Source: Marinobacter sp. (GTDB lineage Bacteria > Pseudomonadota > Gammaproteobacteria > Pseudomonadales > Oleiphilaceae). Taken from it: DNA of 64,000 bases. The position numbers and the translations under genes are program-made. Every line of letters starts with the position of its first letter. Position 1 is the first letter of the stretch. Under the pieces are notes generated by a model. The model had not been told where the DNA came from and made no database searches. It was given only the letters and a program-made list of their open reading frames with translations. The DNA is taken from the NCBI GenBank assembly GCA_018402255.1, contig JAGYIS010000005.1, positions 222,153 through 286,152 on the forward strand. The letters run 5' to 3'. Positions 1,153-46,437 of this stretch are shown here, piece after piece.

Positions 1153-1260
1153 CGCGTGGGTGTTAGGGCCTTCCGGGACACGCTGTAAATACGTCCCTGT
1201 ACGCTCGTCAAAAGCCATCCATGGCTTTTGACGGTCCCGGAAGGCCCTAACACCCACGCG
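1153..1260. repeat. Large hairpin repeat, copy R1
   Basis: A perfect 26-bp inverted repeat (1153-1178 against 1235-1260) encloses a 56-nt core. The stem extends by four more pairs after one mismatch. The core starts CACGCTGTAAATACGTCC, continues CTGTACGCTC, and holds an inner 13-bp palindrome around GCCATCCATGGC (1206-1218 against 1221-1233). The same core is found at 3103-3155 and, inverted, at 46356-46408, but with unrelated outer arms. This copy lies between two divergent genes, so it is in a promoter or leader region rather than at a gene end. It is not a protein-coding stretch, although it generates short spurious ORFs. Confidence 0.9.
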
Positions 1261-1280
1261 AGCTCCCCAACTTTGGAGCT
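1261..1280 (+). promoter_or_regulatory. Leader hairpin covering a Shine-Dalgarno sequence
   Basis: AGCTCC (1261-1266) can pair with GGAGCT (1275-1280) across an eight-base loop. GGAG at 1275-1278 is the only Shine-Dalgarno candidate for the GTG start at 1289. The left half directly abuts repeat R1 and can alternatively extend the R1 stem, so the two structures could compete. Pairing is seen; a regulatory role is inferred. Confidence 0.4.
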
Positions 1281-1288
1281 GTGACTAA

Positions 1289-3082
1289 GTGCAATCCTAC
1301 GCTGACAACGATTACCCTGCTGACCACAAACCAGACTGGAAGGTGATTTCTGGCTTGTGGCCTTACTTGGCGGAATTCCGGGGTCGTGTGGTTATTGCTC
1401 TGGCTCTGCTGGTACTGGCCAAACTGGCCACCGTGGCCACGCCTGTGGCTCTGAAATACATTGTGGATTACCTGGATCAGAACCGTGGTGCGGACATGCT
1501 GCTGTGGGTTCCGATTATCCTGGTGGTGGCTTACGGCTCGCTGCGTTTTGGCGCCACACTGTTCAATGAACTGCGAGATGCGGTGTTCGCGCGGGTGGCC
1601 GAACGGGCGATGCGGCGGGTGTCGTTGCGCATTTTTGAACACTTGCATCAGCGGGAGTTGGGTTTCCATCTTGATCGCAAAACCGGCGGCCTGGCCCGCG
1701 ACATCGAACGGGGCACCAACGGCATCAGCTTTCTGCTGCGGTTTACCCTGTTCAACATCGTGCCTACGATTCTGGAAATCCTGATGGTCGCCGGCATTCT
1801 GCTGGTGGTGTTCAACGTTGGTTACGTGCTGGCGATTCTGGTCGCGGTGGTGGTGTACGTGGTCTATTCCATCAAGATTACCGAGTGGCGGACCAAGTTC
1901 GTGCGAGAGGCCAACGCCCGGGATAACCAGTCCAACTCGCGGGCGATCGACAGCCTGCTGAACTACGAAACCGTCAAATACTTCAATAACGAACGCTACG
2001 AAGCGCAACTGTACGACCAGAATCTGGACGATTGGGAGCAGGCGCGGCTGAAAAACCGCCTGTCGTTGGCCACACTCAACGCCGGTCAGGCGCTGATCAT
2101 TGGTTTGGCGATGATTGCGATCATGGCGATGGCCGTGGGCGAAGTGGCCAGCGGTGAGATTACCCTGGGCGACTTCACCATGATCAACGCCTACCTGTTG
2201 CAGCTGTTCATTCCCCTGAATGCTCTGGGGTTTGTGTATCGGGAAATCCGCCAGGCGCTGGTGAATGTCGAACGCCTGTTCAAACTGCTGGGCGACAAAC
2301 CGGCCATTCAGGATGCGCCGGATGCCACCGAGCTGGTAGTGACGAATGCCGAGGTGCGTTTTGACCACATACACTTTGCCTACCGGTCGGATCGTCCCAT
2401 TTTGCAGGATGTGAATTTTACCATTCCGGCCGGTCATACCGTGGCGGTCGTGGGCGCCAGCGGCGCCGGGAAGTCTACCCTCGCCCGCCTGTTGTTTCGA
2501 TTCTATGAGGTCGATCAGGGCGCTATCCGTATCGACGGTCAGGATATCCGCCAAGTGACACAGAACAGCCTGCGTTCGGCTATTGGCGTGGTGCCTCAGG
2601 ATACGGTGCTGTTCAACGATACTCTGTATCGCAATCTGGCCTACGGCAACCCGGCGGCCAGTGAGGAACAGGTTTACCGGGCAGCACGCCTGGCCCACCT
2701 GGAAGATTTTATCCACAGCCTGCCGGATGGTTACGAAACCAAGGTAGGCGAGCGCGGTTTGAAGTTATCCGGTGGCGAGAAACAACGGGTGGCCATTGCC
2801 CGGGTGATCCTGAAAAACCCGCCCTTGCTGATTCTCGACGAGGCGACGTCATCGCTTGATTCGTTATCAGAGCAGGCGATTCTGAGCGCGTTGAAAGAAG
2901 TCAGTCAACAGCGCACTACTCTGGTGATCGCCCACCGGTTGTCCACCATTCGGGATGCCAACACCATTTTAGTGATGGATGGTGGCCGGATTGTCGAGAG
3001 TGGCAGCCACAACGAGTTGCTGGCTCTAGGTGGCCATTACGCCCATCTTTGGGAGCAGCAGCATCGGAGTGGCGAACAGTAA
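1289..3082 (+). CDS. ABC exporter of the Atm1/ABCB7/HMT1 type
   Basis: A 597-residue half-transporter with membrane domain (about residues 30-320) followed by an ATPase domain. Walker A GASGAGKS is at 389-396, signature LSGGEKQR at 493-500, Walker B LLILDE at 513-518 and the switch histidine at 549. The stretch NYETVKYFNNE (225-235) is a hallmark of the Atm1 family, whose mitochondrial and bacterial members export glutathione- or sulfur-containing compounds and confer heavy-metal tolerance; this substrate assignment is by family only. The start is GTG at 1289 behind a weak GGAG. The gene is divergent from another ABC exporter and ends inside the left arm of hairpin repeat R2, which includes its last codons and stop. 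Confidence 0.9.
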   Translation: MQSYADNDYPADHKPDWKVISGLWPYLAEFRGRVVIALALLVLAKLATVATPVALKYIVDYLDQNRGADMLLWVPIILVVAYGSLRFGATLFNELRDAVFARVAERAMRRVSLRIFEHLHQRELGFHLDRKTGGLARDIERGTNGISFLLRFTLFNIVPTILEILMVAGILLVVFNVGYVLAILVAVVVYVVYSIKITEWRTKFVREANARDNQSNSRAIDSLLNYETVKYFNNERYEAQLYDQNLDDWEQARLKNRLSLATLNAGQALIIGLAMIAIMAMAVGEVASGEITLGDFTMINAYLLQLFIPLNALGFVYREIRQALVNVERLFKLLGDKPAIQDAPDATELVVTNAEVRFDHIHFAYRSDRPILQDVNFTIPAGHTVAVVGASGAGKSTLARLLFRFYEVDQGAIRIDGQDIRQVTQNSLRSAIGVVPQDTVLFNDTLYRNLAYGNPAASEEQVYRAARLAHLEDFIHSLPDGYETKVGERGLKLSGGEKQRVAIARVILKNPPLLILDEATSSLDSLSEQAILSALKEVSQQRTTLVIAHRLSTIRDANTILVMDGGRIVESGSHNELLALGGHYAHLWEQQHRSGEQ

Positions 3083-3182
3083 GGGGGAGGCCCTCCCAAA
3101 ACACGCTGTAAATACGTCCGTGTACGCTCTGCTCCGCCATCCATGGCTCCGCAAGGTTTTGGAAGGGCCTCCCCCTTACTGT
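3076..3182. repeat. Large hairpin repeat, copy R2
   Basis: A 27-bp inverted repeat with one mismatch (3076-3102 against 3156-3182) encloses the shared core ACACGCTGTAAATACGTCCG, then TGTACGCTC and GCCATCCATGGC. The left arm contains the last codon and TAA stop of the upstream ABC gene (ACAGTAAGGGGGAGG); the right arm carries the reverse complement, ending CCCCCTTACTGT. The element sits between convergent genes and could act as a bidirectional terminator, but neither side ends in a good U-run. Confidence 0.9.
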
Positions 3183-3199
3183 CGCATCAAGCTTGGGTG

Positions 3200-5497
3200 T
3201 TAATGTTCTCCAAGCCGAAGCGCCAGCCCTGAGGCTCGAACCACCTGCTGCCCCACGCTGTCTCTAAACACATGAGCGTCACCGGTGATCAGGCTGAACC
3301 AGTTTTTGGCCCGGGTGATGCCGGTGTATACCAGCTCCTTGGTGAGCACTGGGCTGAGCCGGTCTGGCAACACCAGGCAGGTGTGGTTGAACTCCGAACC
3401 CTGGGATTTGTGCACCGTCATGGCGTAGACGGTTTCCAGCTGCTGCAGCCGGCTGGGCGAGATCCAGCGGATGCCGCCGGTGCTGTCAGCGCTCGGGAAG
3501 GCCACGCGCAGGGTGTCTTTCGGCTCGCCGGTGGCGGTTTTGTCCCAGGGCAGGCTGAAAGTAATGCCGATATCGCCGTTCATCAGGCCCAGGTTGTAGT
3601 CGTTGCCGGTAACCAGCACAGGGCGACCGGGGTACCAGCCTTCGGATCTCGGGATCAGTTTTTCTGCCAACAGATGCCTTGCCATTTGATCATTCAATCC
3701 TTCCACACCCCAGGGGCCTTTGCGTAACGCGCAGAGAATCTGGAAATCGTTGAACGCCTCCAGTACCTCAAGCGCCAGCGCGTCCCAATCTGCGCGGGGG
3801 CTGGTCGCGGTCAGGCCGTGATTCCGTAGCCGTTCGAGATAATGCCGGTAACCGACAGGAGGCTTCAGTGGCTGACTGTTCACCACTCGCCCTTGGCCAG
3901 CGTTGCGGAAGGCTTCCGGTGTGCCGGTGGTGGCGTGGCGGCAGATCTGTGCCAGGGTGTGTTCCAGCTCCGGTCTTGGGGTGTGGCCATTGAGCCAGAT
4001 CACGTCATCGAAATCCGCGTTGCGGATCTGCTCTAAGACAGCCTTGTCCAATGTGTTGGAATTGACGGCTTCAGCCAGCTGGCGAATGCCGCTGTCCTGC
4101 TGGAACCGGTAGCTCTTGCGCAGCATGGCGACCGCCTGGTCCATGGCCTGGCCGTTGGGATCGACCAGGCCAGCCGGCACCTGGGATCCGGTGATGGTAC
4201 TCAGCCATCGGGCGGTGGCCGGGGTGTAGTGAGCATCGAAAGCCCGCTGGCACAGCTCACCCAGCACCGCGCCGGCATCCACTGAGGCCAGCTGGTCCTT
4301 GTCGCCCAGCAGGATCAATTGGGCGTTGGTGGGCAGGGCGTCGAATACCGAGGCCATCAGGTCGACATCGACCATCGAGGCTTCGTCGATCACCAGAATG
4401 TCCACCAACAGCGGGTTGTCCTTGTGATGGCGGAACTGGCGGGTATCCGGCCGGCTGCCCAGCAGGCGGTGCAGGGTGGTGACCTTGGTGGGGATGTCCT
4501 CCAGTGTTACGCCACCCGGCAGCTCGGTAAGGGGCAGTCGGTTGACGGCGCCGCCGATGGATTCGTTCAATCTGGCTGCGGCTTTACCGGTGGGCGCAGC
4601 CAGGCGGATGCGGTATTTACGCCCTGCCCGGGCCGGGTCGTCTGCAGCTACGGCCTGCAAGGCGGCCAGCAGGTTGACCACGGTGGTGGTTTTGCCGGTC
4701 CCGGGGCCGCCGGTGATCACGGCAAAGCGATTGCGGGCAGCGAGCGCGCAGGCCAGCTTCTGGTAATCCACCGATTCTGCAGCCGGGAACAAGGTGGCCA
4801 ACGCCTGTGACAGGGTTTTCGCCGGAGCGCAGTCGGGGTCGGCCAGTGGCGATGGCAAGGCCAGGCGCTGCAAGATGCCCTCGGCAATGCGCTGTTCATA
4901 GCGCCAGAACCGGCGCAGGTACAGCCGGTTTTCGTTTAAAACGAGGGGTGTAGTAAGTGAGCCATCACTTACGGCCAGGGATCTGTCAAGAGAGGCTTTG
5001 CATTCCTCCAGGCTGGTCCGTGCAAACAAATCAGAGGGCTTCAGCTGAGTCAATTCGGCGGCTTCGGATTCGCTGAGACTGCTGTGAACGGGCTCCTCCG
5101 GCGGCAGCGATAAGGTGTTGCCGGCATCCGTCAGCAGGTTACTCAGATCAATACAGACGTGGCCACGGCCGACCTGATGTGAGGCCAGCGCCGCCAGGAG
5201 CAACACCAGGGGTTGCGGGCGCTCGCCCTGCTCTTCTGACAAGTCACGGATCAAGCGGGCAAAGCCGACATCCAGCGGTCGAATCCACTGGGCCTGTTGC
5301 CACTGTTGCAGCAGGGCGTCGGTCTGTTCCAGGCTGGTCAACAAGGCAGAGTTATCCACAGCCCTTGGTGGGGTTTCTGGCACCGATGCTGTCGATAGCA
5401 TCTTATCTACAGAATCGTCTGGAGCGCCGCCTTGTGTGTCGTCGCCCAGGTCCAGGGTAATCTGGTTGTCAGAATGGCCTTTGCGGGAACGGCTCAT
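3200..5497 (-). CDS. recD: Exodeoxyribonuclease V alpha subunit RecD
   Basis: RecD is the fast 5'-3' helicase motor of the RecBCD double-strand-break repair enzyme. The 765-residue product has Walker A GGPGTGKT at 263-270, the Walker B-like VIDEASMVD, LILLGDKDQLASV, and the C-terminal UvrD/TraA-like motif MTVHKSQGSEF. It is longer than the 608 residues of E. coli RecD; about 50 extra residues form an acidic, low-complexity N-terminus and more lie before the helicase core. Its ATG overlaps the recB stop codon as ATGA, so it is translationally coupled and last in recC-recB-recD. The start is fixed by this overlap. Confidence 0.97.
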   Translation of the reverse strand: MSRSRKGHSDNQITLDLGDDTQGGAPDDSVDKMLSTASVPETPPRAVDNSALLTSLEQTDALLQQWQQAQWIRPLDVGFARLIRDLSEEQGERPQPLVLLLAALASHQVGRGHVCIDLSNLLTDAGNTLSLPPEEPVHSSLSESEAAELTQLKPSDLFARTSLEECKASLDRSLAVSDGSLTTPLVLNENRLYLRRFWRYEQRIAEGILQRLALPSPLADPDCAPAKTLSQALATLFPAAESVDYQKLACALAARNRFAVITGGPGTGKTTTVVNLLAALQAVAADDPARAGRKYRIRLAAPTGKAAARLNESIGGAVNRLPLTELPGGVTLEDIPTKVTTLHRLLGSRPDTRQFRHHKDNPLLVDILVIDEASMVDVDLMASVFDALPTNAQLILLGDKDQLASVDAGAVLGELCQRAFDAHYTPATARWLSTITGSQVPAGLVDPNGQAMDQAVAMLRKSYRFQQDSGIRQLAEAVNSNTLDKAVLEQIRNADFDDVIWLNGHTPRPELEHTLAQICRHATTGTPEAFRNAGQGRVVNSQPLKPPVGYRHYLERLRNHGLTATSPRADWDALALEVLEAFNDFQILCALRKGPWGVEGLNDQMARHLLAEKLIPRSEGWYPGRPVLVTGNDYNLGLMNGDIGITFSLPWDKTATGEPKDTLRVAFPSADSTGGIRWISPSRLQQLETVYAMTVHKSQGSEFNHTCLVLPDRLSPVLTKELVYTGITRAKNWFSLITGDAHVFRDSVGQQVVRASGLALRLGEH

Positions 5498-8400
5498 GCG
5501 GCCACCTCCCCTGATCCGGGCTCGCCGTCAAACAAGGCATCCAGCTGTTCGATCAACACTTTCGGTGGTTTGTCGGTAAAGGCACCGCCGTTGGCTGCAT
5601 TCACGCCACGGAGGAACAGGTAGACCGCGCCGCCGATGTGCTGATCGTAGTCGTAGCTGGGCAAGCGTGCCTTCAGCAGGCGATGCAGGGCCAGCAGGTA
5701 GAGCACGTATTGCAGGTCGTAGCGTTTGTCCAGAATGGCATCCCCCATGGCCTGATCGGTGTAGGCGCTGTCGTCGTCACCCAGGGTATTGGATTTGTAG
5801 TCGAGCACGTAATACTGACCGTTGTGCTCGAACACCAGATCGATAAAGCCCTTGATCATTCCGTTGAAGCGGTTTTCCTCCACCTGCGGCCGGTCAGCGC
5901 TGTTCAGGGTATGACTGGTGATCAGCCGGTCGAGGGTGCGAACGTTGACGTTGCGGCTTTCAAACCAGAACTCCAGTTCCGGGCGCAGGGTGGCCAGGCC
6001 CAGCAGACTGATGCTGTCTGTGCTGGCGCGTTGCAGTTGCAGTGGCCGCTGGATCAGTGCCAGTAGCCAATGTTCCAGTGGTTCAACCCAGTCTTGCCAG
6101 CCCCGCGTGCCGCAGCGGCGTGTGAGCTGTTCCCGCAGCATGGCGGGGTTATCCACAATCTGTTGAAAGCCGTGTTGGCTGCACCATTCCAGCAGCTCAT
6201 GCAGGAAGGTACCGGGGCCAGCGCCCTTGGGGAAGTTGTGGTGGTTGCGGGCGTCTGGCATCGGCGTGGTGCCTTCTTCCTGATCCTGTGTACTTTCTTC
6301 CAGCAGGTTCTGGGTCTGGGCGTCTTCTACCTCGCCGGTGAAGGCGATGCCGGTGCCGGCCATACCGGTGTATTCGATCGACGAGTAGCTGGCAATCCAC
6401 CAGTCCTCTTTGGCGGCACGACTGGACAGCAACGCCGGCCCCAGGGCGTCGGGTGTGGGTGCCGTGTACTGGCTGGCGCTGGATTCGGGCAGCGGGCCTA
6501 CGGTGATTTCCGGTCGGCCTTCGGCCAATCGGGCCAGGCAATCGGTGATCCGGCTGTCTGCGTTGCCGGCGATCAGGTAACCCAGGCCGCTTAGGTGCCA
6601 GTTGTCCAGCGCCGCCGCGCCGACCCAGGTGGCAAACCGAGCCCGGGTCAGAGCCACGTAGAGTTTGCGGATGTCTTCGCCGAGGCGTTCCTGGTCAGCA
6701 TGGGCGACGTCATCGGGGGTCGGATCGAACACCGTGATCAGTTTGCCCTGGGGATCGTGGTAGCGCACAAAAGCCTGCTTTTCGCTTTCGCTGCGGAACG
6801 CCGTGCCAAAGGGTAGAAACACCAGCGGGTATTCCAGGCCCTTGGACTTGTGCACGGTGATGACCTTCACCAGCCCGGCGTCGCTTTCCAGGCGCAGGGT
6901 GCGGTGTTCGTCTTCTTCGTCCGCCGCCCGCAGAATCTGGGTGAAGTGATGCACCAGCGCGTGTTCACCGTCCAGTTGCAAGCTGTCCTGTTGCAGCAGT
7001 TCGGCGATGTGCAGGATGTCGGTCAGCCGGCGTTCGCCGTCGGCTCGCTGCAGCAACCGCCCGGGTACTTCAAAGTCCATCAGGAAACTGCGCAGCATGG
7101 GTAGCACACCCTGGTTCTGCCACTGCTGCTGGTAGTTTTGAAAGCGCTCGATTTCCCGTTCCAGCACCAGCTCATCGGTCAGCAACAGGTCCATCGCTTG
7201 CCAGGACTGACCCAGCGTGGGCGTGGCCAGAGCGGCGCGGGTGTAGGCCAGTTGCCGGGGCTCGGCAAAGGCTCGCAGCCAGCACAGCACTTCTTTGGCT
7301 TCCTGCGAAGTCAGCACCGAGTCCCGATCCGACAGATACACGCTTTTGATGCGTCGTTGGCTCAGGGCATCCCGCACGGCGGCGGCTTCATTACGGTTAT
7401 TGACCAGCACAGCAATATCATTGGGCGCGACCGGTTGCAGATCCGTCGGGTCGTCTGGCAGGGCAAAACCTGCCTGCCCGGTCTGGCCCAGCGTCAGCAG
7501 CCGGGCAATCTCGCTGGCGCAGGTTTCCGCCACATCGGCGGTGGCGGTGCCTTTGGCCAGGGCTTTCGGATTACCGTCTTTGTCCTCTTCCGACGATTCG
7601 TGGGTCCAGAACATCAGGCTGGGTTGCTGCTCGCCGTTCACCGACCACAGGCGTTTGGTGCCGTTGGCATCCACGCCCTGAAACGGAAGCGGTGAGGTGT
7701 CGCCTTTGCCAAACAGGAAGGCACCCCGGGTGCTGTGCTGGTCGCTGTAGTCAAACACCCGGTTGACCGCATCCACCATGGACCTGGCGGAACGGAAATT
7801 CTTGCCCAGGGTGTAGGTGCGTTCCTTGACGCCCTGGCGGGCCTGCAGATAGGTGTAAATGTCCGCGCCACGGAAGCCGTAGATGGCCTGTTTCGGGTCG
7901 CCGATCATCAGCAGGCAGGTGCTGGGGTCGCCCTCCGCCACGTTATAGATCCGGTCGAAAATGCGGTATTGCACCGGGTCCGTATCCTGGAACTCGTCGA
8001 TCAGTGCCACCGGGAACTGACGGCGGATGGTAGCCGCCAGCTGTTCGCCCCGGGGACCGTGCAGAGCGTCGTCCAGGCGGGTGAGCAGGTCGTCAAAACC
8101 CATCTCCGAACGTTGCTGTTTTTCCGTTTCCAGGCGTGTGGCAACCCAGTGGCTGGCATGGCGCAGAATGTCGGATTTGGCGCTGGGCTGGTTCTGGCCG
8201 AACGCCATCAGCGCTGCGATAGCCTCAAAAGCCGGATGGTCGGGAGCCGGATCATCCCCTTTGAGAATGTTGTCCAGGCCTTCCGGGGTCTGGTTCTTGA
8301 ACCCGGCAGCGCTGTCGAGTTTTTCGGGCAACAAATCATCTGAGTCGGTCCAGGCGATCAGCGAGTCCCAGACCTTGAGCATGGCATTCTTGCTGCCACC

Positions 8401-9222
8401 GTGCAGCCGTTTGCTCTTGTTCAGTTCGTTCAGCAGGTCAGTCACTTCGCCCTGCCACCCGGCCCAGGGCTGAGCTTTGAGTTCCTGTGACTGTGTCAGT
8501 CGTTCGCTGACCACCTTATTGATGGCCTGGTGCACGTTGTCCGGGGGCGTACCCAGGGACTCGGGATCATCAATCAGGTTGCGCACAGCCTTGCGCAGGT
8601 CGGTGGGGGTTTTCCAGTGGCTCAGGGCCTCGTCCATCAGCGCCGGTGGCAGTGGGTACACAAAGGTACGCCAGTAATCACGGGCCACGTCATCCAGCAG
8701 CTCGCTCTGGTCGGTTTCCAGGGTCAGCTTGAACAGGCTGCCGCTGTCGAAGGCGTGCTCGCTCAACATGCGATTGCAGAAGCCGTGAATGGTAGACACC
8801 GCCGCCTCGTCCATCCATTCGGCGGCCAGTAGCAGCTTTTTCCGGCACTCAGGCCAGGTTGACCGGTCCGGATAGCTGTCATTTCTCAACTGATAGATCA
8901 GCGCGGTTTCCGCGGGCGGCGCGGGCTCGTCCGGTGTCTCCGAGAACACCTCCGCTGCTTGCGTCAGCCGGGTGCGAATACGGTCCCGCAGCTCTTTGGT
9001 AGCCGCTTCAGTGAAAGTGACCACCAGCAGATTGGGCGGCAGCAGGTCTTTCGGCAGCGGGCTGTCAGCGGGCTGGCCGTGGCCCAGCACCAGGCGCACA
9101 TACAGAATGGCAATGGTGAAGGTCTTACCAGTGCCGGCGCTGGCCTCAATCAGGGCACTGCCGTTCAGGGGTAACGCCAGTGGGTCAAGATCAGGATTGA
9201 AGTTGCTCATTGGATCACTCAT
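5494..9222 (-). CDS. recB: Exodeoxyribonuclease V beta subunit RecB
   Basis: RecB is the 3'-5' helicase and only nuclease of RecBCD, and also loads RecA. The 1242-residue product begins with the UvrD-type Walker A ASAGTGKT (27-34), has DEFQDTDPVQY (Walker B), VHKSKGLEYPLVF, and near the C-terminus the nuclease core with VLDYKSN, where Asp and Lys are the catalytic PD-(D/E)XK residues. An upstream in-frame ATG exists, but the start at 9222 forms an ATGA overlap with the recC stop and is preferred; a second ATG lies four codons later. Length is close to the roughly 1180 residues of E. coli RecB. Confidence 0.97.
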   Translation of the reverse strand: MSDPMSNFNPDLDPLALPLNGSALIEASAGTGKTFTIAILYVRLVLGHGQPADSPLPKDLLPPNLLVVTFTEAATKELRDRIRTRLTQAAEVFSETPDEPAPPAETALIYQLRNDSYPDRSTWPECRKKLLLAAEWMDEAAVSTIHGFCNRMLSEHAFDSGSLFKLTLETDQSELLDDVARDYWRTFVYPLPPALMDEALSHWKTPTDLRKAVRNLIDDPESLGTPPDNVHQAINKVVSERLTQSQELKAQPWAGWQGEVTDLLNELNKSKRLHGGSKNAMLKVWDSLIAWTDSDDLLPEKLDSAAGFKNQTPEGLDNILKGDDPAPDHPAFEAIAALMAFGQNQPSAKSDILRHASHWVATRLETEKQQRSEMGFDDLLTRLDDALHGPRGEQLAATIRRQFPVALIDEFQDTDPVQYRIFDRIYNVAEGDPSTCLLMIGDPKQAIYGFRGADIYTYLQARQGVKERTYTLGKNFRSARSMVDAVNRVFDYSDQHSTRGAFLFGKGDTSPLPFQGVDANGTKRLWSVNGEQQPSLMFWTHESSEEDKDGNPKALAKGTATADVAETCASEIARLLTLGQTGQAGFALPDDPTDLQPVAPNDIAVLVNNRNEAAAVRDALSQRRIKSVYLSDRDSVLTSQEAKEVLCWLRAFAEPRQLAYTRAALATPTLGQSWQAMDLLLTDELVLEREIERFQNYQQQWQNQGVLPMLRSFLMDFEVPGRLLQRADGERRLTDILHIAELLQQDSLQLDGEHALVHHFTQILRAADEEDEHRTLRLESDAGLVKVITVHKSKGLEYPLVFLPFGTAFRSESEKQAFVRYHDPQGKLITVFDPTPDDVAHADQERLGEDIRKLYVALTRARFATWVGAAALDNWHLSGLGYLIAGNADSRITDCLARLAEGRPEITVGPLPESSASQYTAPTPDALGPALLSSRAAKEDWWIASYSSIEYTGMAGTGIAFTGEVEDAQTQNLLEESTQDQEEGTTPMPDARNHHNFPKGAGPGTFLHELLEWCSQHGFQQIVDNPAMLREQLTRRCGTRGWQDWVEPLEHWLLALIQRPLQLQRASTDSISLLGLATLRPELEFWFESRNVNVRTLDRLITSHTLNSADRPQVEENRFNGMIKGFIDLVFEHNGQYYVLDYKSNTLGDDDSAYTDQAMGDAILDKRYDLQYVLYLLALHRLLKARLPSYDYDQHIGGAVYLFLRGVNAANGGAFTDKPPKVLIEQLDALFDGEPGSGEVAA

Positions 9223-38153: not shown

Positions 38154-38188
38154 GGCCGGTCTTTCGGGCCACATCATAAGGGTTGTGC

Positions 38189-38962: not shown

Positions 38963-38965
38963 GGT

Positions 38966-39799
38966 TTGCAACCAGCGCGGCCACTGAAAAAGAACGCCAA
39001 TAAAAAACGGACGCCGGACTGGATTGTCACCTTTGCCGATCTGGCCACCCTGCTGCTGACGTTTTTTATCCTGTTGTTATCGTTTGCCGAGATGGACGCA
39101 GAAAAATACCGGGCCATGGCCAACTCGATGGCCCTGGCTTTTGGCTCCAGCAACGTGGTGGCGGAGGACATTGGCGGCTCACCGCTGACATTGATTGAAG
39201 CCGACACGGTGTCGTTGCCGGAGCCGTCCGAAACACTGCAGGACCAGCCAGAATTCATCGATGAGCGCGCTGAGCAACCAGAAGCCCGACCGATACAGGG
39301 TGGTGTGCTGGATCTGGCTGGCCGGCTGATTCAGGAACTGGAATCGGAAGTCGCCTCCGAAACCTTGAATGTTAATTATGACGAAGACCAGGTGGTTATC
39401 CGTTTTTCTGAGGAGGCCACCTTCCGTTCCGGTGACGCCGCCATCAAACCCGAGATGATTCCGATCATCGATCGGGTGGTTCAGGTGTTGTCTGCCTGCA
39501 CCGGTGATGTGGTGGTGTCTGGCCATACCGACAATATACCCATTTCAAGCGGCCAGTACCGCTCCAATTGGGACCTGTCGGCCGCCCGGGCGGTGTCCGT
39601 CGTGCATGAACTGGTGCTGAACCGGCAGATCCCGGCGAACCAGGTGGTGGCTGCGGGCCGTGCGGAAACCCGACCTCTGGTTGCCAATGACAGCGCGGAC
39701 AACCGGGCGGTCAATCGCCGTGTTGAAATTGCCATTCGTAATCCGGAGTGTGATGAAGCCGCACCGACACGCGATCTACCCATAGAAATTCTGCCTTGA
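38966..39799 (+). CDS. motB: Flagellar motor stator protein MotB/PomB
   Basis: MotB anchors the stator to peptidoglycan and carries the ion-binding aspartate. The 277-residue product has one membrane helix containing WIVTFADLATLLLTFFILLL, with Asp25 the essential residue, a plug region after it, and a C-terminal OmpA-like domain (GDVVVSGHTDNIPISSG, NWDLSAARAVSVV, NRAVNRRVEIAI). The start is TTG at 38966, nine bases after GGAGG; no ATG gives a complete N-terminus. The pair stands outside a flagellar cluster, as is usual for stator genes. Confidence 0.94.
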   Translation: MQPARPLKKNANKKRTPDWIVTFADLATLLLTFFILLLSFAEMDAEKYRAMANSMALAFGSSNVVAEDIGGSPLTLIEADTVSLPEPSETLQDQPEFIDERAEQPEARPIQGGVLDLAGRLIQELESEVASETLNVNYDEDQVVIRFSEEATFRSGDAAIKPEMIPIIDRVVQVLSACTGDVVVSGHTDNIPISSGQYRSNWDLSAARAVSVVHELVLNRQIPANQVVAAGRAETRPLVANDSADNRAVNRRVEIAIRNPECDEAAPTRDLPIEILP

Positions 39800-39915
39800 G
39801 CGCATGGGCCTTATGCTCGAGGCGCAGATCCTCATAGTGGATTCATATAACTGAGCCAGATTCAAAGCCTTATACTGTGCCGCCTAACACCAACCAGTAT
39901 TCAGGAGTTCTGAGC

Positions 39916-40233
39916 ATGAGCGGACCAGACAAGCCGAAAGTGATTGGCGAAGATTGGAGTGACGAGCGGGTCCGAAGTTTTCTGGAGCTGTCGCCCTGGG
40001 ATCAAAACCTCAACCCGGACCACTATGTGCTGACACGGGCTTACGAGTCGATGCGGGCGGAGGACTTTGAGCGCTTTATCGGTTTTTTCGTGGCGGCAGG
40101 GCGAGACCTGAATGCACAAGATGGCCATGGCCAGACCTTGCTTGATCGGGTGTCACAGCACGCGCGCAGTATTGATTATGCCCGCGCCATGGAACAGGCC
40201 GGTGCGAAGCGCAAGGCCGTTTCTGAGCACTGA
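39916..40233 (+). CDS. Small conserved hypothetical protein (PA4642-like)
   Basis: The 105-residue product begins MSGPDKPKVIGEDWSDERVRSFL and continues with helix-loop-helix segments (AEDFERFIGFFVAAGRDLNAQDGHGQTLLDRV) that resemble a single ankyrin-like repeat. I recall a similar protein in Pseudomonas annotated as PA4642 family; no function is known to me. ATG 39916 has AGGAG nine bases upstream. TATACT at 39871 may be the -10 element of its promoter, without a clear -35. Confidence 0.8.
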   Translation: MSGPDKPKVIGEDWSDERVRSFLELSPWDQNLNPDHYVLTRAYESMRAEDFERFIGFFVAAGRDLNAQDGHGQTLLDRVSQHARSIDYARAMEQAGAKRKAVSEH

Positions 40234-40241
40234 TTGCCGGC

Positions 40242-40260
40242 CCTGATGGCGATCAGGTTT
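40242..40260 (+). terminator. Weak terminator hairpin between convergent genes
   Basis: CCTGAT (40242-40247) pairs with ATCAGG (40252-40257) across GGCG, followed by TTTC. It overlaps the stop codon of the convergent transferase gene. Short stem and T-run make it uncertain. Confidence 0.35.
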
Positions 40261-41794
40261 CGCCAAATTGCTTTAACAGAAATGACCGGAAGTGGTTCAT
40301 GGGCGCGCCGTGGGTTGCGGTGTCCGGGAGGGTTCCAGGCCGGAATCCCGGCAGTTCACCGGACACAAACGGCGCCACCAGCGCCGGATTGCGGCTGATT
40401 ACATGCACAATCACATCTTTGCTCGCGTTGTCTCCGGTGATCAGTGGTGCTGGCTGGTGATCGCCAAGGATGAACAGTAGCGTGTCGTCGGTCAGGTAGC
40501 GGCTGGCGTAGTCGCCGGCGACGGCCAGAGCGTAATCGATGGCCTCGATATAATGCTCCCGCACCCGCTCCGGATCTCGCCAAAGCGAGACCGGAGCTTC
40601 TCCCATCCCTTCCCATTGCTGGAAGACTTCGCCATCCCCAATACTGTCCCAGTCTTCCAGCACCGGAAGTATCGGCACCCAGGGGGCGTGGCTGCTGATC
40701 AGCGCCAGCTCCGCAAATACCGGAGCTGGGGTTGCCTGTCGCAGTTGTTCAAACCGGTGCCAGGTGTATTGGTCTGGCATGGTGACCCAGTTGAACGCCG
40801 GACCCTGGTAGCCCAATTCGTCACGATCGTAGATCTGGTGATAGCCGAACAGACGTCCTTCAGGCCAGTCCATGGTGATGGCCGGCATCACCGCCAGGGT
40901 GTGGTGTCCGGTCAGGCGAAAGTCGTTGATCAGGGTCGGGTAATCACGGCTCAGAAACGTTTCGTAGGCAAGCTGACTGTTGATCCATTGCCCACTGAGA
41001 ACTGATAGATGCCCCAGCCATGACTGGCCGCCCTGAATAGGCGATGCCAGCCGCCCGGTGGCGACAGTCAGGCCGGCTGCGTCCAGCTGCTCCGCCAGGT
41101 TTTCCAGTCGCGGGCCAAGCACCGGGCGGTAACGATCATCAGTAAGTCCCGAGATACCGTAGGATTCGACAAAGGCCAGCACCACATCGGTGTCGGCCAA
41201 AGCCGGCAACGCCTGTGCTTGCCGGGCCGCTGCCGGTGCCTCATCGAGCTTCACGCGGAACGCTTCGGAGGCTTCGTGTGTGTGCACGATCAACGAGCCC
41301 TGATTGGCCACGAACGCCAGCGCGGGACTGCCTACCCAGGGCGTCAGCATGGCCAGCGCCAGCAGGCCGGCGGTGCCGAGCCACAGGGGGCGGCCTTGCA
41401 CAGGAAGGCCGCGGGCCAGGTGCAGGCCAAGGCGACGGAACAGCCAGGCCACCGCCATCGCCACCAGCAACAATGTAAGGATAACCAGCACGGCGCCAAC
41501 TACCCCCAGATTGGAATGCAACAGGTGCCAGGCCGCATCCAGCAAGCCGATTTCGAGGTACAGGTTGAGCCCCCGGCCAAAGCTCTGGCGGACTAACGCA
41601 TCGGCGACGATCAGCCAGACCATCAGCGCGTAAAATCCGGAGAGCAGAACGACCAGTCGTTTGCGCTGATCAGGCAGATGATGCAACAGCCACCAGATGA
41701 CCAGGGCCTCAAGCGCCAGCCAGGGCGCCGGCCCCGGCAGCGCCAGGGCGGGTAGCAATAACAAGCCATTCAGAAGCACAAAGGCGATCAGCAT
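40253..41794 (-). CDS. Membrane phosphoglycerol/phosphoethanolamine transferase-like protein (alkaline phosphatase superfamily)
   Basis: The 513-residue product has five or so membrane helices in the first 165 residues and a periplasmic sulfatase/LtaS-like domain. Metal-site elements are VLAFVESYG (Glu), IQGGQSWLGHLSVLSG, whose Ser would be the nucleophile where LtaS and OpgB use Thr, and LFILGDHQPAPL (Asp-His). Its ATG overlaps the opgD stop, so it is the last gene of the glucan operon. In E. coli OpgB, from the same superfamily, adds phosphoglycerol to periplasmic glucans; a similar decorating role is inferred here. Identity of the transferred group is unknown. Confidence 0.78.
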   Translation of the reverse strand: MLIAFVLLNGLLLLPALALPGPAPWLALEALVIWWLLHHLPDQRKRLVVLLSGFYALMVWLIVADALVRQSFGRGLNLYLEIGLLDAAWHLLHSNLGVVGAVLVILTLLLVAMAVAWLFRRLGLHLARGLPVQGRPLWLGTAGLLALAMLTPWVGSPALAFVANQGSLIVHTHEASEAFRVKLDEAPAAARQAQALPALADTDVVLAFVESYGISGLTDDRYRPVLGPRLENLAEQLDAAGLTVATGRLASPIQGGQSWLGHLSVLSGQWINSQLAYETFLSRDYPTLINDFRLTGHHTLAVMPAITMDWPEGRLFGYHQIYDRDELGYQGPAFNWVTMPDQYTWHRFEQLRQATPAPVFAELALISSHAPWVPILPVLEDWDSIGDGEVFQQWEGMGEAPVSLWRDPERVREHYIEAIDYALAVAGDYASRYLTDDTLLFILGDHQPAPLITGDNASKDVIVHVISRNPALVAPFVSGELPGFRPGTLPDTATHGAPMNHFRSFLLKQFGET

Positions 41795-43374
41795 CAGAGC
41801 GACCGAGCCTCCAGTGGCGGTGGCGTGTATTGATACAGCCAGGTTTCGCTGAGAGCCTGGGGGCCCAGCCGCAGATACAGGCGCAGGTCGATCGGGTCGG
41901 CGCTGTCATCGGGTATCAGGTCAAACATGGCCCGGAAGCCGTTAATGGCGTGCAAAGGCCGGGCCGACACCAGCTCTACCTTGCCCCGGCTGGCGGTGAC
42001 GACTGCTTCGACGCCGGCTTTACCATCCAGCATCGCCAGGCTGCCCCCCGCAAAATCCACCGCAAAACGCCGTGAAAAATAGGTTCTGGGCTGGCCGATT
42101 ACGCCGCCGATTCCAGTCCGGGTGGCAACAACGCTACCCAGTTCCGGATTCTGGTCTGGCACGGTTTCGCCCCAGCTAAGACCGTACTCAATGGGATAGC
42201 CCTGCCCCGGTTGCCAGGCCTGTGCCGGGTTCCAGAAGGCGACAATGTTGTCGAAGGTTTCATCCTGGGTGGGTATCTCCACCAGTACAACGGCACCCTC
42301 GCCCCAGTCGCCTCGGGGGGTAACCCACAGGCTGGGTCGCTTTTCATAAAACACGCCGTCGTCCTGGTAATGGGCAAAATTCCGGTCCCGTTGCAGCAAA
42401 CCAAATCCCCGTGGATGGTTGTCGACAAAGTGGCTGACGTTGAGCCGTTCAGGATTGACCAGCGGGCGCCAGATACGCTCGCCGGAACCGGTCCAGATGG
42501 CCAGCCCATCGGAATCGTGTATCTCCGGGCGCCAGTCATTGGCCATTCTGCGGTCGTTCTCACCGGTCTGGTACATGCTGGTGAGGGGAGCCAGCCCAAA
42601 TCGCTCCAGGGGTTTGCGCGGGTAGAGGGTGGCTTGCACATCCATGGCCAGATCGGCGCCAGGGTGTATCACAAATCGATAAGCGCCGGTCACGCTGGGG
42701 GAGTCCAGCAAGGCATGAACCGTCAACGACAGGTCGCCAGCCCCGGGGCGTTCAAGCCAGAAGGTTCGGAAACGCGGGAACTCTTCGGGCTCCGGCAATC
42801 CGGTGTTAACGGCGAATCCTCTGGCCGAGAGGCCGTACTGGCGCGACTCACCCACCGCACGAAAGTAACTGGCGCCAAGAAATGCGGCCACATCCCGGCT
42901 GAAATCCTGATGGAAATGCAGCCGAAACCCGGCATAGCCCAGACTGTCGGGCAGATCGCCGAGATCGTTGTCGCCATAGTCGAAATTATCAGCCCGATAC
43001 GGCAACCCGTGGGCCTTGCCATCAATCACCTCATAAAAATGTACGGGCTGCTTGAAGTACAGGCCCAGATGGAAAAATTGCAGTTGAAACGCGCTGTCTC
43101 TGTTTTGCCAGAGCGCCTGCTCTGGTCGGTAACGGATATCCTGGTACTGGTCCCAGTTCAAGGCTTGCAGGCTTTTGGGCAGGGTATTGTTTGGTGCCTG
43201 ATAGGGCTTGCCTGCCAGCGCCCGGGCCTGCTCGCGGAGCCACTGTGCGCTGAAAGGCTGGCCAGATGGCGCAGAACTCGTCAAATTGGCCAGGGCCCGA
43301 GCGCTGCCAGATAACGCGATCGGTGCACCGGCCGCCAGGGCCAGGCCGAGTTTCAGGAGGCGACGCCGATCCAT
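41794..43374 (-). CDS. opgD: Glucan biosynthesis protein OpgD (Tat-exported)
   Basis: The 526-residue product is of the OpgG/OpgD (MdoG/MdoD) family, which shapes osmoregulated periplasmic glucans. The N-terminus MDRRRLLKLGLALAAG, with cleavage near SARA (28), is a twin-arginine signal, as in OpgD rather than the Sec-exported OpgG. The beta-rich main domain includes QYQDIRYRPEQALW, FFHLGLYFKQPVHFYEV and FVDNHPRGFGLLQRDR (catalytic-site region of the family). It lies 12 bp behind opgH and overlaps the transferase gene by one base. No separate OpgG is in the window. Confidence 0.94.
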   Translation of the reverse strand: MDRRRLLKLGLALAAGAPIALSGSARALANLTSSAPSGQPFSAQWLREQARALAGKPYQAPNNTLPKSLQALNWDQYQDIRYRPEQALWQNRDSAFQLQFFHLGLYFKQPVHFYEVIDGKAHGLPYRADNFDYGDNDLGDLPDSLGYAGFRLHFHQDFSRDVAAFLGASYFRAVGESRQYGLSARGFAVNTGLPEPEEFPRFRTFWLERPGAGDLSLTVHALLDSPSVTGAYRFVIHPGADLAMDVQATLYPRKPLERFGLAPLTSMYQTGENDRRMANDWRPEIHDSDGLAIWTGSGERIWRPLVNPERLNVSHFVDNHPRGFGLLQRDRNFAHYQDDGVFYEKRPSLWVTPRGDWGEGAVVLVEIPTQDETFDNIVAFWNPAQAWQPGQGYPIEYGLSWGETVPDQNPELGSVVATRTGIGGVIGQPRTYFSRRFAVDFAGGSLAMLDGKAGVEAVVTASRGKVELVSARPLHAINGFRAMFDLIPDDSADPIDLRLYLRLGPQALSETWLYQYTPPPLEARSL

Positions 43375-43386
43375 GAGGTATCCTCG

Positions 43387-45465
43387 TTATGATTGGTGGC
43401 CGTGTAGGTTGCGGACCGCTGTCGTGACGAAGCTGTCGTCGAGCCTGGCCAGCACGGATCCCCAGGGCGAGCCGGGTTTGGCGTGCCAGGCCCTGACGTG
43501 CAAAGACGCGAGCGCGTCAGGGTGTTCACACAGTAAGCTGATCTCATCGGGAGCGAGCGCACCCGGGCCCTGTTCTGCGCACTGATCGACCAGTCTGCTC
43601 AGGACCGTTTGCTTGCAGCCGTTCTTGACGGGGGGCCGACGATGACGCCAACCGCGGTAATGGGGTGACAACACCGCCTGTTCAAACCAGCTCAGGGTGG
43701 GAAGGCGCTTACCTTGCGGCTGTACAGACAATGCTGAGCTGATAACCGGCGTTGGTGATTCTGTCTCCGGCACGGTCATCCATTGAGGGTTTGCAGGACC
43801 CGCCAGCCATAGCATCAACACGGGCGCCATCAGCAGTGGCAGGGTAACGGGCAGCGCCCAGGGCGTCAGATCTGGTGTGTACCAATGAATCAGTGCGAGC
43901 AAGCCGGTGCAGGCCAGTGCAGGCCAGACGAAATGCTGGAGTGCTTCAGCAAAGCCAACCGCTCCGGTCCGGTTCTGCCCGCGCCACTGAAGATTGCGGT
44001 TCAGAAGGGCGCCTGCGACATGACCGCTGTGCACGATCATCCGGATGGGCGCGAGCAATATCGATACCAGGGTTTCCAGTGCCGTATTGGTCATCAATCG
44101 CCACCGCCCCCCGAAGCCCTGTGACCGCCCTGCCAGGCCCTGATCTATCAAGGCCAGAATCCGGGGCCCCAGAAGCAGGGAGATGGTCAAGCCCACCAAC
44201 CCGCTTTCGGTTAGAGACCAGCTGGCGGGCGACGCGTTGATCAGTTCGGTCAGGGGCGCACCGGATGAGGCGCTGGCAATGGACAGGTAGGCTGACAGGC
44301 CCAGAAATACCAGCCACAGCGGTGAGGCCAGATAGGATAGTATTCCTGTGATCAGGGCGACACGATGGCAAAACTTCAGTTTGCTCAGGGTTAGCAGGGG
44401 TGCCAGATGCTGAAGGTTGCCCCGACACCAGCGGCGGTCCCGAATCAAATCATCCTTCAAGGTGGGCGGGGACTCTTCAAAGCTGCCAGATATCGAGGGC
44501 TCCAGCCAGACCTCATAACCAGCCCGGCCCATCAGCGCCGATTCCAGATAGTCGTGGCTGAGCACCGGTCCACGAAACAGCCCCCACCCTCGTAACTGCC
44601 GCAAGCCACAATGTTCCATGAACGGTGCCACCCGGATAATGGCATTGTGCCCCCAGTAATTGGCATCACCCAACTGAATGGCGGCCAGGCCGGCGCTGTG
44701 AATGCGGCCATAACAACGGTTGGCAAACTGCTGCAATCGCGCAAAACGGGTGTCCGCCCGGGCCAGCCGGGGGGCGGTCTGGATAATGCCAGCCTGTGGC
44801 CGTTGCTCCATCAAGCCAAGCAGCCGCTGGATGGCCTCGGCAGATAGCAGGCTGTCTGCGTCCAGCACCACCATATAACGGTAGCGAGCGCCCCACCGGC
44901 GCAGAAAGTCGGCGATGTTGCCGCTTTTGTATTTCAGGTTCACCCGGCGCCGTCGATAGAAAAGGCGGCCGCCACCCAGACGTGCATCTATATCGGCACA
45001 GGCCGCCTGCTCTTCCAGCCAGGTTTCCGGTTCCTGGCTGTCGGACAACACGTAGACATCAAAATTTGCTAACAAGCCTCGGTGGTCGAGGTCTTGGCAT
45101 ACGGCGTTCAGATTACCCAATGTGCGCTGCACTGGCTCGTGACAGATCGGCATGACCAGAGCCACGCGCTCACCGATTGGCAAGCTGACCGAGGTCGCTG
45201 CGAAGCGCCGGCTTAAACTCAGTGGATCGCCACCACGTCGTAACATCACGAAGCCGAACACCGCGGTCCAGAAGCCCAGGCCAATCCAAGTAAACAGAAT
45301 CGCAAACACGCCAATCAGAGCGGCTGCAGGCCAGCCGCTGTTCACCGCGGAGACATTCTGGGTAAGCAGCCAGACACCGGCAGCCGTCTGTCCGAGCACC
45401 AAAAGCGCCAGTAACAAACGCCGGCGAAAGGCAACCGATTGCCATCGGGGTTCAGTCAACGCCAT
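43387..45465 (-). CDS. opgH: Glucan glucosyltransferase OpgH
   Basis: OpgH is the membrane GT2 glycosyltransferase that polymerises UDP-glucose into periplasmic glucans. The 692-residue product has helices near 14-33 and 43-67, a GT2 domain with DVYVLSDSQEPE, RRRRVNLKYKSGNIADFLRRWG, MVVLDADSLL, HNAIIRVAPFMEHC and RDRRWCRGN (QxxRW-like), and several C-terminal helices. The start ATG 45465 overlaps the end of a 78-codon upstream gene. It is shorter than E. coli and Pseudomonas OpgH (about 850), which have a cytoplasmic N-terminal domain of 130 or more residues; here that part is missing or replaced by the small upstream frame. Confidence 0.93.
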   Translation of the reverse strand: MALTEPRWQSVAFRRRLLLALLVLGQTAAGVWLLTQNVSAVNSGWPAAALIGVFAILFTWIGLGFWTAVFGFVMLRRGGDPLSLSRRFAATSVSLPIGERVALVMPICHEPVQRTLGNLNAVCQDLDHRGLLANFDVYVLSDSQEPETWLEEQAACADIDARLGGGRLFYRRRRVNLKYKSGNIADFLRRWGARYRYMVVLDADSLLSAEAIQRLLGLMEQRPQAGIIQTAPRLARADTRFARLQQFANRCYGRIHSAGLAAIQLGDANYWGHNAIIRVAPFMEHCGLRQLRGWGLFRGPVLSHDYLESALMGRAGYEVWLEPSISGSFEESPPTLKDDLIRDRRWCRGNLQHLAPLLTLSKLKFCHRVALITGILSYLASPLWLVFLGLSAYLSIASASSGAPLTELINASPASWSLTESGLVGLTISLLLGPRILALIDQGLAGRSQGFGGRWRLMTNTALETLVSILLAPIRMIVHSGHVAGALLNRNLQWRGQNRTGAVGFAEALQHFVWPALACTGLLALIHWYTPDLTPWALPVTLPLLMAPVLMLWLAGPANPQWMTVPETESPTPVISSALSVQPQGKRLPTLSWFEQAVLSPHYRGWRHRRPPVKNGCKQTVLSRLVDQCAEQGPGALAPDEISLLCEHPDALASLHVRAWHAKPGSPWGSVLARLDDSFVTTAVRNLHGHQS

Positions 45466-45688
45466 ACCCCATTTTGCCCCTGACGAGCTGCGGCGGGCGG
45501 GTGGGATTTTGGTGCTGCTGGTCGCAAAGCTGCGCCTGCACCTGCGGCAGCAATTGAGCCAGGCGTAAGTCATGCCGACTGTCGTGCAATAGTCCACGCA
45601 GGCGGGAGCGCGTGTCGGGGCAGGTGTCATGCCCTGCGGCGTTCAGGTAAAGCAAGGCACGTCGGTATGCCGTGTCAGTGGGGTTCAC
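45452..45688 (-). CDS. Small 78-aa protein ahead of opgH, perhaps a detached OpgH N-terminus
   Basis: Starting at GTG 45688 behind GGGAG (six-base spacer), this frame encodes a basic, helical 78-residue protein with no signal or membrane helix (YRRALLYLNAAGHDTCPDTR, HDLRLAQLLPQVQAQL). Its TGA lies 14 bases inside the opgH frame, so the two are translationally coupled. E. coli OpgH has a cytoplasmic N-terminal region at this place that also inhibits FtsZ; this small protein may be a separated version, an unrelated gene, or the result of a frameshift. The sequence does not decide. Confidence 0.6.
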   Translation of the reverse strand: MNPTDTAYRRALLYLNAAGHDTCPDTRSRLRGLLHDSRHDLRLAQLLPQVQAQLCDQQHQNPTRPPQLVRGKMGYGVD

Positions 45689-45753
45689 GATTATCTCCCG
45701 GCTTGTAACAGCACCGAAACATACGGACGTGCGTTGGTGTTCAGACCACTCTG

Positions 45754-46290
45754 TTAACGCTCGTTAAGGTATTGGTCTTTAAGTTTGACGTAATTGGCCG
45801 CGGTATATTTGAAGAAGGTGCGCTCTTTTTCCGTCAGCGCCCGGGCCTGCTTACACGGTGAGCCGACGTATAAATGCCCGGATTCCAGGCGCTTACCCGG
45901 TGGCACCAGGGTGCCTGCCCCGATGATTACCTCGTCCTCGACCACCGCGCCGTCCATTACGGTGCAACCCATGCCGACCAGAACCCGGCTGCCAATGGTG
46001 CAGCCATGCAACAGGGCCTTATGGCCAACGGTCACGTCATCACCAATAATCAATGGCCAGCCGCCAGGGTTAAAATCACTGGCGTGGGTGATGTGCAGCA
46101 CGGAGCCATCCTGAATGCTGCAGCGGTCGCCGATGCGGATTTTGTGCATGTCGCCGCGAATGACAGTCATCGGCCACACCGAGCAGTCTTCGCCGGCAAT
46201 TACGTCGCCAATCACTACGGCACTCTCGTCTACCCAGCTGCGTTCGCCGAATTGTGGTGTGATACCCTTGTGAGTTCGTACATTTGCCAT
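45754..46290 (-). CDS. Gamma carbonic anhydrase family protein (YrdA-like)
   Basis: The 178-residue product is a left-handed beta-helix trimer protein with hexapeptide repeats (VVIGDVIAGEDCSVWPMTVIRGD, IGDRCSIQDGSVLHI, VTVGHKALLHGCTIGSRVLVGMGC). The metal-binding histidines of gamma carbonic anhydrases are in place in VLHITH and VGHKALLHG. YrdA/CaiE relatives often lack strong activity, so CO2 hydration is possible but not certain. ATG 46290 (ANVRTHKG) gives the family N-terminus; longer readings run into hairpin repeat R3. Confidence 0.92.
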   Translation of the reverse strand: MANVRTHKGITPQFGERSWVDESAVVIGDVIAGEDCSVWPMTVIRGDMHKIRIGDRCSIQDGSVLHITHASDFNPGGWPLIIGDDVTVGHKALLHGCTIGSRVLVGMGCTVMDGAVVEDEVIIGAGTLVPPGKRLESGHLYVGSPCKQARALTEKERTFFKYTAANYVKLKDQYLNER

Positions 46291-46326
46291 TACATATACC
46301 TTTATTGCGTTTTCCCGAAGTTTGGG

Positions 46327-46437
46327 GGCGCGTGTGGGGTAGGCCTTTCCAAAACCTTGCGGAGCCATGGATGGCGGAGCAGAGCGTACACGGATGTATT
46401 CACAGCGTGTTTTGGAAAGGCCTACCCCACACGCGCC
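46327..46437. repeat. Large hairpin repeat, copy R3 (inverted orientation)
   Basis: A perfect 29-bp inverted repeat (46327-46355 against 46409-46437) encloses the shared core, which here reads on the minus strand ACACGCTGTGAATACATCCG, then TGTACGCTCTGCTCCGCC and ATCCATGGCTCCGC, two transitions different from R2. The outer arms are unrelated to those of R1 and R2 except for the inner GGCCTTTCCAAAAC part. It lies between the divergent carbonic anhydrase and prlC genes. Confidence 0.9.

What the first reader, a model, noticed from the sequence alone, without database searches (positions are those of the whole stretch)
1153..46437. Family of large hairpin elements with a shared core but private, self-complementary arms (R1, R2, R3)
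At 1153-1260, 3076-3182 and 46327-46437 a core of about 55 nt (CACGCTGTRAATACRTCC ... TGTACGCTC ... GCCATCCATGGC) is nearly identical, yet the enclosing 26-29 bp stems differ from copy to copy while each is nearly perfectly self-complementary (0, 1 and 0 mismatches). Mutation and selection on a mobile core alone would not normally give different yet perfect arms at each place. It suggests that when the core enters a site, one flank is copied as its inverse (hairpin-primed or template-switch copying), or strong ongoing selection for a locus-specific stem. Copies sit both between convergent (R2) and divergent (R1, R3) genes, so terminator function alone does not explain them.
Basis: partly seen in the sequence, partly recalled or inferred. 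Interest (0 to 1): 0.8.

Follow-up and report, generated by a model that had tools for sequence, protein, structure and literature searches.

The report
Scattered hairpins that likely bind CsrA
The three look-alike hairpins belong to a family with at least 95 detected copies in this bacterial genome; their RNA is predicted to fold into a long stem bearing two docking loops for the global regulator CsrA and so would likely soak that regulator up, while the letters of the stem differ between copies yet stay matched.

Summary
A covariance model finds 95 copies in the 3.5-Mb genome (lower bound). Of 92 read, 91 carry exactly two C-A-N-GGA-N-G motifs on one strand, on small stems that covary, while the letters N vary. 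ANGGAX on a stem is the high-affinity CsrA/RsmE site (PMC4005645). On that strand G.U outnumbers A.C in the outer stems (81:27 in 117 representatives), also where neighbouring genes run the other way (30:7), so the stems look selected as RNA of the GGA strand. The nearest known family is Rfam TwoAYGGAY, already predicted in print to bind CsrA (PMC4333381); R1 and R3 score below its cut-off, R2 does not match, one own copy passes. My reading: a dispersed set of CsrA-binding RNA hairpins, likely a collective decoy, with stems kept matched by selection and probably template switching. Transcription and binding are untested; folding programs rarely choose the second loop unaided (13 of 91).

The parts
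1148..1265 (-). R1: whole element, GGA strand is minus; 32-bp arms 1148-1179 and 1234-1265
   Evidence: model hit C4:223310-223407; TwoAYGGAY 37.0 bits, below cut-off 43
1216..1223 (-). R1 hairpin 1 motif CATGGATG (hexaloop AUGGAU closed by C-G)
   Evidence: sequence; closing pair in the fold
1192..1199 (-). R1 hairpin 2 motif CAGGGACG (hexaloop AGGGAC)
   Evidence: sequence; short stem supported by covariation over the family, not chosen by the fold of this copy
3076..3182 (-). R2: whole element, GGA strand is minus; the left arm overlaps the stop codon of the gene ending at 3082
   Evidence: model hit C4:225233-225329; no TwoAYGGAY match
3138..3145 (-). R2 hairpin 1 motif CATGGATG
   Evidence: sequence; fold
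3115..3122 (-). R2 hairpin 2 motif CACGGACG
   Evidence: sequence; as for R1 hairpin 2
46327..46437 (+). R3: whole element, GGA strand is plus; upstream of the gene starting at 46499
   Evidence: model hit C4:268486-268582, best in the genome; TwoAYGGAY 35.9 bits
46366..46373 (+). R3 hairpin 1 motif CATGGATG
   Evidence: sequence; fold
46389..46396 (+). R3 hairpin 2 motif CACGGATG
   Evidence: sequence; as for R1 hairpin 2

Best explanation
R1, R2 and R3 are three of at least 95 mostly intergenic copies of one element whose GGA strand is predicted to fold as RNA into a long private stem capped by two C-ANGGAN-G hexaloops, and which likely binds the regulator CsrA/RsmA and would act as a dispersed decoy for it. 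Shown: the copies, the two motifs in 91 of 92 copies read, the covarying outer stem and short stems under the motifs, the strand-specific G.U excess, and one csrA gene in the genome. Inferred: that the strand is transcribed (no promoter or terminator signal was found, so read-through from either side is assumed), that a CsrA dimer clamps the two loops, and that about 190 loops per genome together compete with mRNAs for CsrA. Also inferred: the stem must stay paired but its letters are free, so it diverges at each site, and template switching between the arms helps to copy changes from one arm into the other and can turn the core round.
For: 91 of 92 own copies have exactly two CANGGANG, although the small stems differ: next to the closing C-G, hairpin 2 shows A-U 83, C-G 7, G-U 1 (91 of 91 paired, shuffles at most 81) and then U-A 50, C-G 37 (87 of 91, shuffles at most 71); hairpin 1 is paired at both such positions in 91 of 91. 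The two letters that vary in the loops are N and X of ANGGAX, the looped-out ones in the RsmE structures (PMC4005645, passages). In elements collected by hairpin 2 alone, hairpin 1 has A-N-GGA-N with at least two Watson-Crick closing pairs in 97 of 117 representatives, C-G being the closing pair in 96 of 97. G.U 125 against A.C 30 in 205 elements, 81:27 in 117 representatives, 28:9 in own copies outside the training set, and in every gene context. Covariation score 0.642 against 0.146 shuffled. One own csrA. Rfam TwoAYGGAY: 11 own hits at E up to 0.001, one above the cut-off, none in 14 control genomes. Mirrored changes 48 against 18 one-sided; core orientation differs at one site between species.
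Against: No transcript or binding data. The minimum-energy fold forms the hairpin-2 closing pair in only 13 of 91 copies (median probability 0.10) and in none of R1-R3; hairpin 1 in 78 of 91. In the training alignment hairpin 2's pairs hardly vary. Copies outside the training set were still found with a model that holds both loops. No own promoter signal. No significant preference for lying sense to tandem neighbours (36:27 or 32:20), and the core flips at a site, which does not suit strict mRNA control. R2 has no TwoAYGGAY match. csrA is in 26 of 27 motif-bearing genomes against 313 of 369 overall, and the exception G192 (88% complete) has 22 motif copies: weak. Five loci hold 38 of the 48 mirrored changes, and at some of them the near flank is replaced too, so allele exchange may account for part.
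Confidence: 0.62

Rival explanations
1. Each copy is a cis-acting CsrA site: it lies in the leader or tail of one mRNA, and CsrA bound there changes that mRNA's stability or translation, with no collective decoy role.
For: Copies lie close to genes (median distances about 50-100 bp); R2's arm overlaps a stop codon; the R3 site has been kept in 29 of 30 loci read; Rfam files TwoAYGGAY as cis-regulatory.
Against: Core orientation flips at one site between species; no significant sense bias beside tandem genes; G.U excess is as strong where both neighbours run the other way (30:7).
Confidence: 0.22
2. The element works as single-stranded DNA: one strand extrudes a hairpin that a nuclease or Y1 transposase recognises, as for REP sequences and RAYT proteins.
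For: Long palindromes, core inversions and deletions are DNA events; one Y1_Tnp gene is in the genome; G.T is also the milder mismatch in DNA.
Against: The loops fit the CsrA site including which letters vary (PMC4005645); sites are old, and no fresh insertion was seen.
Confidence: 0.08
3. One reading: each arm pair was made when the core entered a site, by copying one flank as its inverse.
For: Few own copies share arms (6 of 3828 pairs with 13 or more of 14 letters).
Against: Arms are homologous between species at R1, R2 and R3 and go on changing in both arms; readable vacancies look like deletions.
Confidence: 0.05
4. They are intrinsic transcription terminators whose loops have been taken over by a repeat.
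For: Strong hairpins near gene ends, with G-rich 5' arms.
Against: T-run of 4 or more within 15 nt in 0 of 86 copies on the GGA strand and 5 of 86 on the other; R1 and R3 lie upstream of genes; at the L097 site a terminator-like hairpin with its T-run stands separately beside the element.
Confidence: 0.03

Closest known systems
TwoAYGGAY RNA (Rfam RF01731, clan CL00106)
   Same: Two hairpins with ANGGAN loops inside an outer stem that is poorly conserved in sequence; gammaproteobacterial members are listed (PMC2864571, table passage); CsrA binding was predicted from two motif matches (PMC4333381, passages).
   Different: R1 and R3 score under the cut-off and R2 does not match; here it is a dispersed family of about a hundred copies per genome, loops are ANGGAN and not only AYGGAY, and hairpin 2 has another stem.
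Ysr224 (Rfam RF02770, Yersinia sRNA)
   Same: A Pectobacterium copy of the element passes its cut-off (73.3 against 70); aligned over the whole core of R1 (19.2 bits). It is among the 20 most prevalent sRNAs in a survey (PMC9029176, passages).
   Different: The Rfam model is of the opposite, TCC strand; no CsrA link was seen in the passages read.
CsrB/CsrC and RsmX/Y/Z decoy RNAs
   Same: Several GGA hairpins that titrate CsrA (PMC4333381 and PMC4005645, passages).
   Different: Those are one or a few sRNA genes with own promoter and terminator (recalled); here many two-loop copies without such signals.
Template switching between inverted repeats (PMC8794818, abstract; PMC8604942, passages)
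   Same: Multi-base mirrored changes in both arms and inverted spacers.
   Different: Described there for RNA genes and for yeast genes; here a repeat family gives many replicate stems at fixed sites. The mechanism is inferred here, not shown.

Membership tests
TwoAYGGAY (RF01731) | Score at or above Rfam's cut-off of 43 bits | tested here: inconclusive
   R1 37.0 and R3 35.9, not met; R2 no match; 1 of 11 own hits passes with 43.8; none of 18 named loci with the element passed.
TwoAYGGAY (RF01731) | Two terminal AYGGAY loops | tested here: inconclusive
   Two ANGGAN motifs in 91 of 92 copies, but N is A, G, T or C and X is mostly T or C, wider than AYGGAY.
TwoAYGGAY (RF01731) | Outer stem with little sequence conservation | tested here: met
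   Outer stem 98.9% paired, 21 of 22 pairs change on both sides.
CsrA/RsmA-binding RNA | ANGGAX hexaloop directly on a stem, closed by C-G | tested here: inconclusive
   Motif in 91 of 92 copies and covarying stems, but hairpin 2 is rarely the minimum-energy fold (13 of 91).
CsrA/RsmA-binding RNA | Binds CsrA in vitro or in vivo | not testable with these tools
   Needs gel shift or CLIP.
CsrB/RsmZ-type decoy gene | Own promoter and intrinsic terminator | tested here: not met
   No T-run in 86 of 86 on the GGA strand, promoter scores equal on both sides; consensus scans at R1-R3 found nothing beyond chance.
REP/RAYT elements | Y1 transposase matched to the repeat | tested here: inconclusive
   One Y1_Tnp gene in the genome; its surroundings and its link to the repeat were not examined.

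The most novel reading that the evidence does not exclude
The genome carries a distributed sponge: about a hundred intergenic 'repeats' are one collective RNA decoy for CsrA, read out by whatever transcription passes through, so that total read-through sets the level of free CsrA. Their stems are rewritten in both arms at once by template switching, so sequence drifts freely while the stem and the two loops persist, and the core can flip at a site without loss of function.
Probability: 0.35. Interest if true: 0.8.

Novelty: new variant of a known kind. Interest (0 to 1): 0.62.

Why it matters
Intergenic palindromes are often taken for terminators or inert repeats. Here a simple strand test (G.U against A.C) separates RNA selection from a DNA palindrome and points to a post-transcriptional regulator. 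If the decoy reading holds, CsrA control in these bacteria would be spread over the genome and not only over a few sRNA genes, and copy number (3 to 117 model hits in 11 same-genus genomes, lower bounds) would be a species-level setting. The family also offers many replicate stems per genome for measuring template switching against selection.

Tried and rejected
Rfam at gathering level on the window gave only a tRNA. At permissive thresholds microRNA models also hit these long hairpins, so only the strand-specific TwoAYGGAY match was used; a first permissive scan of 2.5 kb had not shown it. A plasmid search found nothing. Gene-direction counts with 60-aa ORFs were spoiled by ORFs through the hairpins and redone with longer ORFs. 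An own promoter was looked for and not found. csrA presence against element presence over the class was too weak to use. Gene conversion from another own copy as the source of new arms: best matches of the ten examined loci to other arms were mostly 10 to 14 of 16 letters against a background 99th percentile of 13, so no clear donor. Rows dropped: 2 of 52 sequences (L132, L140) before the pair count, because hairpin 1 lacks the N and shifts the register; 3 of 95 model hits not read; 20 of 27 same-orientation orthologue pairs used (both flanks required; L113/L085 needed a 7-pair shift of register), the 9 flipped pairs looked at apart. Paper searches listed no paper whose title or abstract describes such a dispersed family; the library is open-access only, and supplements were not read.
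Full report
WHAT IS THERE. The three hairpins are confirmed. The core with at most one mismatch has 36 places in the own genome G000, and 89 of 100 same-genus genomes, own included, have at least one. A covariance model built from 50 copies with distinct arms finds 95 hits in G000 at E up to 0.01, all spanning model positions 1-97; only 150 of 918 first-look candidates were scored, so this is a lower bound. Eleven same-genus genomes give 3 to 117 hits, again with 150 candidates scored each; six of the eleven were chosen because the plain pattern had found nothing there. In a draw of 369 genomes of the class, 27 including G000 have the motif.

WHICH STRAND, WHICH PARTS. The relevant strand is the minus strand for R1 and R2 and the plus strand for R3. 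Thirteen core-bearing copies of several core types were folded: each has a long outer stem and two C-A-N-GGA-N-G motifs in its head. Of 92 own copies read, 91 have exactly two such motifs, 23 to 25 nt apart. The motifs sit on short stems of different sequence that covary: hairpin 1 is paired at the two positions next to the closing C-G in 91 of 91 copies, hairpin 2 in 91 and 87 of 91, each above every one of 500 shuffles. Against this, the minimum-energy fold forms the hairpin-1 closing pair in 78 of 91 copies but the hairpin-2 one in only 13, and in none of R1-R3; so the second loop would have to be stabilised by its protein. The 69 copies outside the training set were still found with a model that holds both loops. 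A freer test is hairpin 1 in elements collected by hairpin 2 alone: 97 of 117 representatives have A-N-GGA-N closed by at least two Watson-Crick pairs, C-G in 96 of 97. ANGGAX directly on a stem is the high-affinity CsrA/RsmE site, and N and X are the looped-out letters (PMC4005645, passages); N and X are the letters that vary here. The own genome has one csrA.

RNA OR DNA PALINDROME. A DNA palindrome has no preferred strand, so transitions should leave G.T and A.C mismatches about equally often. On the GGA strand the outer stems of 205 distinct elements hold 5220 Watson-Crick pairs, 125 G.U and 30 A.C; one representative of each of 117 arm clusters gives 81 and 27, with 49 elements richer in G.U and 18 in A.C; own copies outside the training set give 28 and 9. 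The excess holds where both neighbours run against the GGA strand (30:7), along it (29:6), towards each other (20:3) and apart (25:8), so it is not a by-product of neighbouring transcription. In 50 copies the covariation score is 0.642 against 0.146 in shuffles and at most 0.157 with slid partners. Strand-bound single-stranded DNA remains a formal alternative.

THE PRIVATE ARMS. At orthologous sites many arms are related and change together. Twenty G000/G045 pairs with both flanks matched (mean flank divergence 6.3%) give 526 stem pairs: 48 mirrored changes, 18 one-sided, 3 other. Of the 48, 28 include a transversion, so did not pass through G.U in one step, and 31 stand next to another mirrored change. 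Five loci hold 38 of them; at L027/L098, L117/L099 and L114/L084 the near flank is changed as well, so exchange of whole alleles between lineages may be at work; without the five, 10 mirrored stand against 13 one-sided. Clearer in-place cases are L021/L095 (CC..GG against TT..AA, flanks 98%) and L005/L079 (AG..CT against CT..AG, flanks 88-89%). The core lies in either orientation at the same site in different species. Arm homogenisation and spacer inversion are the two known products of template switching between inverted repeats (PMC8604942, passages; PMC8794818, abstract). I infer that selection for the RNA stem and template switching act together; their shares are not measured.

At the R3 site 29 of 30 loci read carry an element, with different arms, core types and orientations; at R1 and R2 many of the 29 relatives read do. 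Missing elements, where readable, look like deletions: L046 against L056, L051 against L035, and G000 against G045 at the L097 site, where five further species are occupied and G000 keeps the right arm. One relative (L254) joins the left half of one arm type to the right half of another, with mismatched arms. Inverse copying on entry is thus not needed and not seen, though the first origin of a copy remains unseen.

NOT TERMINATORS, NOT CLASSICAL DECOY GENES. 0 of 86 copies have a T-run of 4 or more within 15 nt after the GGA strand, 5 of 86 on the other; promoter scores on the two sides do not differ. Copies beside tandem genes are sense 36, antisense 27 (or 32 and 20 with longer ORFs), not significant.

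RELATION TO WHAT IS KNOWN. Rfam TwoAYGGAY (RF01731) matches R1 with 37.0 and R3 with 35.9 bits on the GGA strand (cut-off 43), not R2; in the own genome 11 hits, one above the cut-off, none in 14 control genomes. PMC4333381 (passages) predicted on motif grounds that TwoAYGGAY binds CsrA and remarks that its external stem is not well conserved. So the two-loop plan and the CsrA idea are in print. I did not find in print (searches; open-access library; listings, with passages of seven papers) the high-copy dispersed family, the strand test, or the behaviour of the arms. Ysr224 (RF02770) appears to be the same element recorded on the other strand: a Pectobacterium copy passes its cut-off.

VERDICT. 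A dispersed family of RNA elements with two predicted CsrA sites each; likely a decoy, possibly cis sites; a new high-copy variant of a known motif. The checks weakened the folding of hairpin 2 and strengthened its covariation; I left the odds about where they were.

Noticed in passing
G000, e.g. C2:51087-51385 (L358), C7:485676-486023 (L340), C9:279189-279437 (L118): All 13 pairs of own copies closer than 700 bp (12 of them within 152 bp) have the GGA strands pointing outward (minus then plus); farther neighbours are mixed (+- 23, ++ 19, -- 18, -+ 13). Five close pairs (under 300 bp) visible in the partial listing (G045, G052, G082) are the same, while one G045 pair 682 bp apart is minus-minus. 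Flanking genes are convergent in 6 of 12, so the cause is unclear.
   Followed up: partly
window 48899-48970; L120 2139-2216: A second hairpin family: perfect 25-bp private arms with the same TTCCAAAAC neck but a 22-nt head without CANGGANG; the same head recurs beside an element in L120.
   Followed up: no
L072 (G074:C3) 102432-102507, 123555-123641, 129084-129179 of that stretch: Another class of private-arm hairpins in a relative, with heads holding AACTCGCTNCGCTCAGACAT; the first lies where the window has the hairpin 48899-48970.
   Followed up: no
L057, L084, L153, L191, L201, L287, L288, L304: Enlarged elements whose head carries an extra insert, in several cases with further GGA-bearing hairpins.
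   Followed up: no
G192 (class draw): 22 copies of a GGAGG variant, several at contig ends, in a genome (88% complete) where no csrA was found.
   Followed up: no
L163 2188-2513: Three motif copies about 153 bp apart in a Saccharophagus MAG, apparently a tandem array.
   Followed up: no
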